Shown: positions 40,101 through 43,100 of the stretch, one piece after another | Position numbering within the stretch: position 1 is the stretch's first letter | Layout: each line of letters starts with the position of its first letter | Assembly: GCF_032118995.1 (NCBI RefSeq) | Contig: NC_092654.1 | Span: 1,178,001 to 1,242,000 of the forward strand | Source: Asterias amurensis | Lineage: Eukaryota > Echinodermata > Asteroidea > Forcipulatida > Asteriidae | Direction of reading: 5' to 3' | Length of the DNA: 64,000 bases | Notes under the pieces: model-generated | Database searches by the model: none | The model's input: the letters and a program-made list of their open reading frames with translations, nothing else | Told to the model about the DNA's origin: nothing | Translations under genes and position numbers: made by a program

Positions 40101-43100
40101 TAAGATTACTGGGTTCTTTTACATGCGTTACTCAACACATGGGACCAACGGCTTTACGTCCCATCCGAAGGACGAAGCAATGGTAAAGTCTCTTGCTTAA
40201 GGACACAGGTGAAAACAGCAAAAAACTGTCACAGTCTTTTCATGCTGCATCCATCCATGTTTAGCGAGGGTGACAGCTGTTACCAACCGTATCTCTGGCC
40301 CCAGCATTCGATACAGATGGAAAGTTTGATCGGACTTACCGTAGCAAGTGACGCCATCGTTCTGGAGACCGTAGCCTTCATCACAATGAGGTGTGCAGTT
40401 GGCGGCATCACCAGTGCAATTGGTGCCTGTAATCAGGGAGTTACCACATAAGAAAATATTTATCTTAAGGAAGAATGTTGGGCCGTGTTCGAAACGGCGA
40501 CTTCAACTACAGCTACAGCTAGATAAAAAAATTAGGTAGACGAGCGCGATCTAGCCATAGCTTTAGCCGAAGACGGTCTTACATTTCATAAACCACACAA
40601 ACACAGATCCTTTTCATTTTATTGGTCCTGTGTCATCCAATATTATGCCATGTATTTTCTGCCGTGATTCTCCAACATTGGATAGATCCACTTGGTTGAA
40701 ATACTCACAACAAACAAAAATAAAAGTAGATACTGAAAATTTGATTAATTAACTTTGGGAGATAAACTAAAAACAGACAGCGAAAATAATTATATACACA
40801 TCAAAATTCGTTTTGAATACAGACACGAGATCAAATGGTGGACTGACACGAGAACATTACACTCAGTGTACTGTTTTCAAAGGTTAAAAATTGTGTTTTT
40901 TTTAAATTGTCACAACTCACGTGGGATGCAGTCTGCCTCGTCCGAACCATCCCCACAATCGTCAGATCGGTCACAGACCTTGGCCAGTGAAATACATTGC
41001 CTGTTTCCGCACTTGAACTCTTCAGCATTGCACAGGACGGGAGCACCTAAACAACAACATCATCATCAATCAATCAATCAATCAATCGTAGCATTTTTAA
41101 GGCACCATATAGGGCTTTCTGGGTAGTCCATAAATAACTTACATTCCTCATCGCTGTTGTCGCCACAGTTATCATGTCCATCACACACCAACGAGGGATA
41201 GATGCAGATATGATTACGACACTGAAATCTATTTCGAGAACAGGACATGTTGGCTGGAATAAAAAAAACAGACAAATGTTTAGATAAAAAATCAATTAAT
41301 ATTTTCATAAGGGAAACTGACTTGGTAGATTATAGTTCAATTTATGCGGTAACGCTTTTCAGATTCAAATTTTGAGGCATAAAAAGTTATTTTTTTTACA
41401 TAACCACATGCTTCAAAATTAAAAATGTTTCTCAAAATGCTTTATACTATCGAAAGCTGCTGCACATCTTTCTAACCAAAGGGTTTCATTGCCATTAATT
41501 TTAAAAGTGAATACCAAACGTATACCGTCCATCCAATGTTGATTCACATGAAGTGTGAGACAGCCATTAGACTAGCCAGATAGTCCACTGATTTATCATC
41601 ACAAATGTGAGACAGCTATTAGACTAGCCACATAGTCCAATGATTTCTTACCACAAATGTGAGACAGCTCTTAGACTGGCCAAACAGTCCAACGACTTCT
41701 CAACACAAATTAATGCGAGACAGCCTTTAGACTAGCCTAATTTAGTCCAATAACTTCTTACCACAAATGTGAGACAGTCTTTAGACTGGCCACATAGTCC
41801 ACGTATTTCTCACCAAAAAGTGAGACAGCCTTTAGACTGGCCACATAGTCAACTTATTTCTCACCATAAAATGAGACAGCCTTTAGACTGGCCACATAGT
41901 CCACTTATTTCTTACCACAAAGACCAGGATCTTCATCAGAGTTATCACCGCAGTCGTCTTCTCCGTCACAGCGCCACTGTTTAGGGACGCACTGCGTATT
42001 GTTACACGGAAACTCAGACTCAGATATGCATTTCCTTTCCTTACCTTTAAATCGACAACAACAAAATTAATTAATTTGGTTTTACCGAACCTGTATCTGC
42101 TTTATAGCAATATTTTTTTGTGTTTCAAGCCTACTTGTCATGCCAAAGTAATAACAGGACACAGTCATCGCAATGTGAAAGACATGACCTTTTTCACTGG
42201 TAACCTGTGTCTGCTAAGCCATATTTGTCTGTGCTAAGCAATTTTTGACACATACCAGTTGGACGAGATTAGGCCGGGAAAAAAAGAAGGATACCAGTCA
42301 CATATATTACATGTGGGAATTGTCATTGACTTGTTACTGTATTATGCTAAGCATAATTTTCTTGTGCTTGGCTACTTTTTTTCTGCTTAAGCAGCTCTAT
42401 AAAATTGGGCCCTCGCTTTGAGCCCAATTTCATAAAGCCTGTAAGCACAAAAACTTGCTTAGCACAGAACAGTATGGCTTAGTAGAAACAGGTTACCAGC
42501 CCAAATTACTTAAGTTGTGGCTGGTGCCAGACTCAATTTTTGCTGAGCAAAGAAATTTGTTAACCATTATTTTCTGCTTAACAGCTTTATGAAATTTGAT
42601 CCCGATACTTACAGCCGTTCTCATCTGACCCGTCATTGCAGTCTCTATCACCGTCGCAGTGCCATCGGTTCCAGATGCACTGGTTATTTTCACACTTAAA
42701 CTCATTCGGTGTGCACTGGATAGAATCTGCAAAATCATCAATCATTCAAATCAATCAAAGCAAAATCAGCAAATCATTGCACATTGATTTAATAGTAACT
42801 GACACTAGTTTCAGACAGGCGCACCAGTGTCACGCCGAACCAAATTCTCAAATAATTACATGAAAAGTTTAACGTCTGAAAAAATTAGGAGTGTCTGGAC
42901 GCACTAGCAGTCGGAAGATCCCCTGTTGCAGTTGTTCAGAACAAATAGCGTCCCTCTAAATCTACTTAATTCGGCGCGACTCTGGCGCGGGTGCAAGAGA
43001 GGTTTTTATAAGTGCCCTGTTCATAAGGTCATATCATTCATTTCATCTTTCTCAGCTCCCTGGGAATTACACAGCCCTGAGCTGCCACGGGGCTCCAGTG

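What the first reader, a model, noticed from the sequence alone, without database searches (positions are those of the whole stretch)
41550..41921. Row of decoy 5' splice sites made by tandem duplication of an LRP1 exon-intron junction
Seven units of about 52 bp each start with the exon's last six bases and its donor (TTTGTG/GTAAGAA on the minus strand). Only the first is the real junction, but four more keep a GTRAG donor. Use of a distal donor would soon hit an in-frame TAA. Intronic repeats nucleated exactly on a splice donor are unusual and could tune splicing or buffer donor mutations.
Basis: seen in the sequence. Interest (0 to 1): 0.75.

Follow-up and report, generated by a model that had tools for sequence, protein, structure and literature searches.

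The report
Repeated splice-junction copies inside an intron
In an LRP1-like gene of an echinoderm, the last few bases of one exon and its splice signal occur seven times in a row, six of them as copies inside the intron; this matches a repeat type called 'mirages' in lancelets, and here it looks like a harmless by-product of a genome rich in short tandem repeats.

Summary
The array (41,549-41,921, minus strand) has seven 51-58 bp units, each beginning with the last ~6 exon bases plus the donor. Units 2, 3, 4 and 6 keep GTRAG; read-through meets TAA at the fourth codon. Units are 78-92% identical and found nowhere else in the 491.5-Mb genome.

The interpretation mostly fails. Two more donors of the same gene (39,573 and 60,007) have such copies: 3 of 25 checked. 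Elsewhere 5 of 68 LDLa donors and 0 of 20 EGF_CA donors have one. Ordinary intron positions pass as often (83/1347, 192/2058; 3/623 in the EGF loci), so donors are not preferred. Extra donors here are not conserved beyond the rest of the unit.

Such repeats are known in amphioxus as 'mirages', reported not to disturb splicing (PMC3087553, PMC3902484). Minigenes with identical donors 52 nt apart used the upstream one exclusively (PMC9225289); that fits this 129-nt exon between 568- and 662-bp introns.

COX1 reads with the echinoderm code: a second phylum, as far as I found. Most likely neutral; no RNA or haplotype data.

The parts
41916..42044 (-). Exon of an LRP1-like gene, 129 nt, phase 1-1, one LDLa module
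   Evidence: Open frame KERKCISESEFPCNNTQCVPKQWRCDGEDDCGDNSDEDPGLC between splice sites; LDLa pattern; PF00057 match at C7:1219932-1220033 = window 41932-42033
41871..41921 (-). Unit 1: last six exon bases, the real donor (G at 41915, GTAAGAA) and the start of the intron
41820..41870 (-). Unit 2, donor copy GTGAG at 41864
41768..41819 (-). Unit 3, donor copy GTGAG at 41813
41710..41767 (-). Unit 4, donor copy GTAAG at 41761
41658..41709 (-). Unit 5, donor lost (TTGAG)
41606..41657 (-). Unit 6, donor copy GTAAG at 41651
41549..41605 (-). Unit 7, donor lost (ATGAT); end of the array
41254..41915 (-). Intron, 662 bp, of which 367 bp (41549-41915) are array
39247..39585 (-). Second junction array in the same gene: 167 bp x 2, takes in the last 13 bases of the EGF exon ending at 39573 and its donor GTAAGT
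59719..60030 (-). Third case: the last ~24 bases of the EGF exon ending at 60007 plus the first 15 intron bases recur 273 bp downstream; a 16-bp minisatellite (59788-59971) lies between the two copies

Best explanation
This is a mirage-type minisatellite: slippage or unequal exchange duplicated a ~52-bp stretch that happened to begin six bases inside the exon, and the array then grew and diverged inside the intron. Shown here: structure, divergence, no other genomic copy, other examples in the genome, rate about equal to the intronic background. Inferred: the mutational mechanism; and that the real donor is used almost exclusively because the 129-nt exon with introns of 568 and 662 bp is recognised by exon definition, where the donor nearest the exon's own acceptor wins. 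The extra donors are then passengers, tolerated because they are rarely used and because rare use gives a stop and decay of that mRNA.
For: Array anatomy. Two further junction copies in the same gene, 3 of 25 hand-checked donors. LDLa donors genome-wide 5 of 68, against 83 of 1347 and 192 of 2058 intron positions tested the same way and 193 of 2097 in this window: no preference for donors. No other genomic copy of the unit, so not a dispersed element. In this array GTRAG is kept in 4 of 6 extra units, against 3.2 expected from other 5-mers of the unit; parts of the unit's 3' half are better conserved than the donor. PMC3087553 (passages) and PMC3902484 (one passage): such structures in amphioxus Adh, globin, TnC and PGBD5 genes, reported or argued not to disturb regular splicing. 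PMC9225289 (passages and section 8): identical donors 52 nt apart, flanking introns 365 nt, upstream donor used exclusively.
Against: No RNA data here, so normal splicing of this exon is not shown. Pooled over 13 copies of six arrays, GTRAG is kept in 11 against 7.35 +/- 1.61 expected; the best-matching copy of each array was found by junction similarity, which biases this upward, and the 7 other copies keep 5 against about 4.1 (summed by hand). Copied exon parts are all short (6-29 bases), shorter than random starts in units of this size would suggest; not explained. The background differs between samples: the 20 EGF_CA loci gave 0 of 20 donors and only 3 of 623 positions.
Confidence: 0.83

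Rival explanations
1. Functional decoys: the extra donors bind U1 snRNP and adjust the amount of LRP1-like mRNA, through competition or through transcripts that stop at the TAA and are degraded.
For: Four extra donors match GTRAG, two of them (u4, u6) identical to the real one from -3 to +7; in-frame TAA directly downstream; pooled donor retention 11 of 13 against 7.35 expected.
Against: Retention in this array is near expectation (4 of 6 against 3.2); the best conserved parts of the unit are not the donor; identical donors at this spacing were not used in exon-defined minigenes.
Confidence: 0.08
2. Self-masked decoys: in this array the 3' end of a unit (TCTCACT or the like) pairs with the GTGAG donor of the next, hiding decoys 2 and 3, while the real donor has exon in front and stays open.
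For: Modelled probability that +1..+6 is unpaired: 0.42 for the real donor; 0.004, 0.005, 0.19 and 0.19 for u2, u3, u4 and u6; 7-bp hairpin UCUCACU/GGUGAGA over the u3 donor; whole array folds with z = -3.96. At 39573 the real donor is also somewhat more open than its copy (0.038 against 0.016).
Against: In L020, L096 and L110 the real donor is no more open than its copies; 60007 was not modelled. A tandem array with a dyad folds well for trivial reasons, so the z-score is weak evidence.
Confidence: 0.05
3. Back-up donors that protect the exon against donor mutations.
For: Intact donors lie downstream.
Against: Any downstream donor retains at least 51 nt containing TAA, so splicing from it cannot restore the protein. 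Only repair at the DNA level by exchange between units could help.
Confidence: 0.02
4. A dispersed intron-creating element (introner-like) inserted at the donor.
For: Units start at the splice site; the unit contains a dyad (TTGGACTA..TAGTCTAA in u6).
Against: No other genomic copy of the array found and no close match to the unit elsewhere; the exon is an LDLa module with phase-1 ends like its neighbours, so no intron was created.
Confidence: 0.01
5. Assembly artefact.
For: Tandem repeats are often misassembled in copy number (general knowledge).
Against: Units differ from each other by 8-22% and other genes show the same structure.
Confidence: 0.01

Closest known systems
'Mirage' minisatellites of amphioxus (Adh3, globins BflGb6 and BflGb9; also TnC and, imperfect, PGBD5)
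   Same: Minisatellite-like tandem copies of an exon-intron boundary; unit lengths 10-72 bp (Adh3) to 150-160 bp; many but not all copies keep splice signals (PMC3087553, PMC3902484, passages)
   Different: Here in an echinoderm and an LRP1-like gene; splicing and copy-number variation untested; copies seen mainly at donors (acceptors 1 of 33)
[quoted passage not shown]
   Same: Tandem duplication that carries splice signals (PMC4974935, passages)
   Different: No new intron or exon; only an existing intron grew longer
CeRep25B intronic minisatellite near alternative exons of C. elegans
   Same: Mostly intronic, palindromic minisatellite near splice sites (PMC4039745, passages)
   Different: A dispersed 24-base family; the passages seen do not say that it takes in an exon end

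Membership tests
mirage minisatellite | Tandem units that include an exon-intron boundary | tested here: met
   Seven units with exon end and donor region
mirage minisatellite | Unit length in the reported range (10 to ~160 bp) | tested here: met
   51-58 bp; range from PMC3087553
mirage minisatellite | Many but not all copies keep the splice signal | tested here: met
   GTRAG in 4 of 6 extra units
mirage minisatellite | Recurs in several genes, at both kinds of boundary | tested here: inconclusive
   Donors: 5 of 68 LDLa, 0 of 20 EGF_CA, 3 of 25 in this window (the LDLa donors of the window are in both sets, the donor of this finding is counted in both). Acceptors: 1 of 33
mirage minisatellite | Regular splicing undisturbed | not testable with these tools
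   No RNA data
mirage minisatellite | Unit number varies between haplotypes or cells | not testable with these tools
   One assembly held
intron gain by tandem duplication | A new intron or exon arises | tested here: not met
   Exon keeps LDLa boundaries and phase 1-1 like neighbouring LDLa exons; only the intron is longer
introner-type element | Many copies dispersed over the genome | tested here: not met
   Only the window locus matches (the tool skips very common words); pattern with up to 3 mismatches: 7 hits in the array, 3 others, each at 3 mismatches
LRP1 (gene identity) | LDLa cluster, EGF pair, propeller with a basic cleavage-like site, then a run of EGF modules | tested here: inconclusive
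   Module order, RKRR in the last propeller and EGF-like exons between 36032 and 32091 fit, but the best solved match is the last propeller of LRP2 (no LRP1 chain among its 41 hits). That a basic site and an EGF run mark LRP1 rather than LRP2 is recalled. I therefore write 'LRP1-like'

The most novel reading that the evidence does not exclude
Mirages are not a lancelet peculiarity but a common product of intron minisatellites in deuterostomes, with copies limited to short exon ends (6-29 bases here) because longer ones make a decoy donor strong enough to be harmful; the short-exon bias would then be a natural read-out of how much exon a donor needs to be recognised.
Probability: 0.2. Interest if true: 0.55.

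Novelty: new member of a known kind. Interest (0 to 1): 0.3.

Why it matters
It turns an apparent curiosity into a measurable class: in the sample taken, 5 of 68 LDLa donors have a local copy of themselves. Such introns are natural tests of donor choice between near-identical competitors, and of whether exon definition suffices to protect the real site. The clade also matters: the reports I found are in amphioxus, this one is in an echinoderm.

Tried and rejected
Selection on decoy donors: not seen in this array; the pooled excess is explained at least partly by how the copies were found.

Hairpin masking: holds in the model for decoys 2 and 3 here; of four other arrays modelled, three show nothing of the kind and one (39573) a small difference in the same direction.

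Dispersed element: rejected. The 167-bp array is also found only here.

Homologues by protein search: 10 LRP-like hits, at most 36% identity, no named close relative, so no species comparison was possible.

Organism: not named by any tool. COX1 on contig 23 makes sense with table 9 (AAA = Asn at FSTNHKDIGT, GFGNWLIP and MNNMSFW); with tables 2 or 5 these read Lys. Starfish is a guess from 22 large contigs (recalled karyotype), not tested.

A bug: four of eight alignments matched the sequence with itself (overlapping ranges); one search replaces that call.

Full report
What is there. On the minus strand an LRP1-like gene crosses much of the window: LDLa, EGF and YWTD exons in an order expected of a large LDL-receptor relative (one search scanned one of three frames of 36001-64000 against Pfam: LDLa and Ldl_recept_b over their cut-offs, EGF_CA and FXa_inhibition below theirs). 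The exon at 42044-41916 encodes one LDLa module, phase 1 at both ends. Directly behind its donor the array runs in seven units of 51-58 bp, the first of which includes the real junction. Each unit repeats the last six exon bases, with changes in two units, and the donor region. Units 2, 3, 4 and 6 keep GTRAG, units 5 and 7 do not. Units 1-3 are 90-92% alike, all other pairs 78-88%, so the part next to the exon is the youngest or best homogenised. Continued reading from the exon meets TAA at the fourth codon, the junction codon included.

Is it rare? A 40-base probe (15 exon, 25 intron bases) at each donor was aligned to the next 540 bases (500 for the EGF_CA set); a hit needs a score of 30 and must span the junction. 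Shuffles reached the score in 0 of 1000 trials. In LDLa exons over the genome 5 of 68 donors passed: this one, L020 (junction present three times; a palindromic element sits between the last two), L096, L110 (three times) and a degenerate case, L015, just at the threshold. L048 shows a good intron-side match (score 48) but is not among the junction-spanning hits. EGF_CA exons gave 0 of 20, with two weaker junction-spanning matches of 26 and 27. In this window 3 of 25 hand-checked donors passed: 41916, 39573 and 60007. The same probe at ordinary intron positions passed in 83 of 1347 and 192 of 2058 cases, in 193 of 2097 in this window, and in only 3 of 623 in the EGF_CA loci. Neighbouring positions are not independent, so these rates rest on far fewer separate arrays. 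The plain reading is that donors lie in local repeats about as often as other intron bases of the same sequences.

Where do copies start? The copied exon part is 6-29 bases in all 13 copies of six arrays (L015 and L048 were not measured). Probes 50 and 70 bases inside the exon found no downstream copy in 68 exons each; probes at 20 and 35 bases found 2 and 3, which I take for matches to neighbouring LDLa exons but did not check. With copy spacings of 51-273 bp one would expect some longer exon parts, so a bias is likely but the sample is small. Acceptors, placed by rule, showed 1 case in 33.

Do the extra donors matter? In this array 4 of 6 are kept, against 3.2 expected from other 5-mers of the same units; AGTCTAA and CTGTCTC in the 3' half are unchanged in all units. 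Over all six arrays 11 of 13 are kept against 7.35 +/- 1.61, but the best-matching copy of each array was found because its junction is similar; the other seven keep 5, with about 4.1 expected. A local folding model leaves the real donor most open and hides decoys 2 and 3; of four other arrays modelled, L020, L096 and L110 do not show this, and 39573 shows a small difference in the same direction.

What is known. [quoted passage not shown] they occur in Adh3, globin and other genes, vary in copy number, and by the Adh3 data and RT-PCR of globins do not seem to interfere with regular splicing (PMC3087553, passages; PMC3902484, one passage). Minigenes with two identical donors 52 nt apart and 365-nt flanking introns used the upstream donor exclusively; when both donors were weakened, larger exons were skipped instead (PMC9225289, passages and section 8). 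The same paper gives a downstream preference for intron definition. Here the exon is 129 nt and the introns 568 and 662 bp, so exon definition should favour the real donor. This is inference from human data sets and transfected cells (cell type not seen) to an echinoderm.

Clade. Contig 23 holds COX1 with 11 TGA codons; conserved Asn positions are AAA, as in table 9, so the animal is an echinoderm (the table is shared with flatworms, whose COX1 would be far more diverged; recalled). Searches for mirage terms (2 papers hold all terms; 563 papers hold at least 3 of 4 terms, 10 listed) and for minisatellites at exon-intron boundaries with echinoderm or starfish terms (9 listed; 10 of 24 listed) showed me no report outside amphioxus; I saw listings only, and most subscription papers are not in the library.

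Verdict. A real and neat structure, correctly seen, of a known kind, in a new phylum as far as I could find, most likely neutral.

Noticed in passing
window 42039-42044 (-): The same exon begins with GTAAGG right behind its acceptor (TTTAAAG/GTAAGG); after splicing to the upstream exon this rebuilds a donor-like site, as in recursive-splice exons (recalled). The exon is 129 nt, phase 1-1, so skipping would keep the frame.
   Followed up: no
window 44911-44983 (+): tRNA-like sequence in an intron of the same gene (Rfam tRNA, 29.8 bits, cut-off 29), perhaps a tRNA-derived SINE; the 167-bp array also has a B-box-like stretch.
   Followed up: partly
window 46781-47076: About 42 copies of the heptamer GGTTAGG inside the gene, close to the common telomere motif but one base longer.
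   Followed up: no
window 50260-51154: 144-bp tandem repeat, 6.2 copies, 97% matches, between exons of the same gene: less diverged than the junction array.
   Followed up: no
window 59788-59971: 16-bp minisatellite TTTGTAAGGGGGTGAC between the two copies of the third junction; many units carry GTAAGG.
   Followed up: partly
L020, minus strand, about +182 to +401 from the donor: A palindromic element (GGGCCCAATTTCATAGAGCTGCTAAGCA...TGCTTAGCAGCTCTATGAAATTGGACC) sits inside a unit of the junction array.
   Followed up: partly
G000 C5:658874-660214 and 675294-676634: Two COX1 copies matching the whole Pfam model on a large contig, about 16 kb apart: nuclear copies of mitochondrial DNA or an assembly error.
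   Followed up: no
G000 C16:2598674-2604292: 22 of the scored LDLa matches lie in a single open frame of 2240 residues without introns.
   Followed up: no
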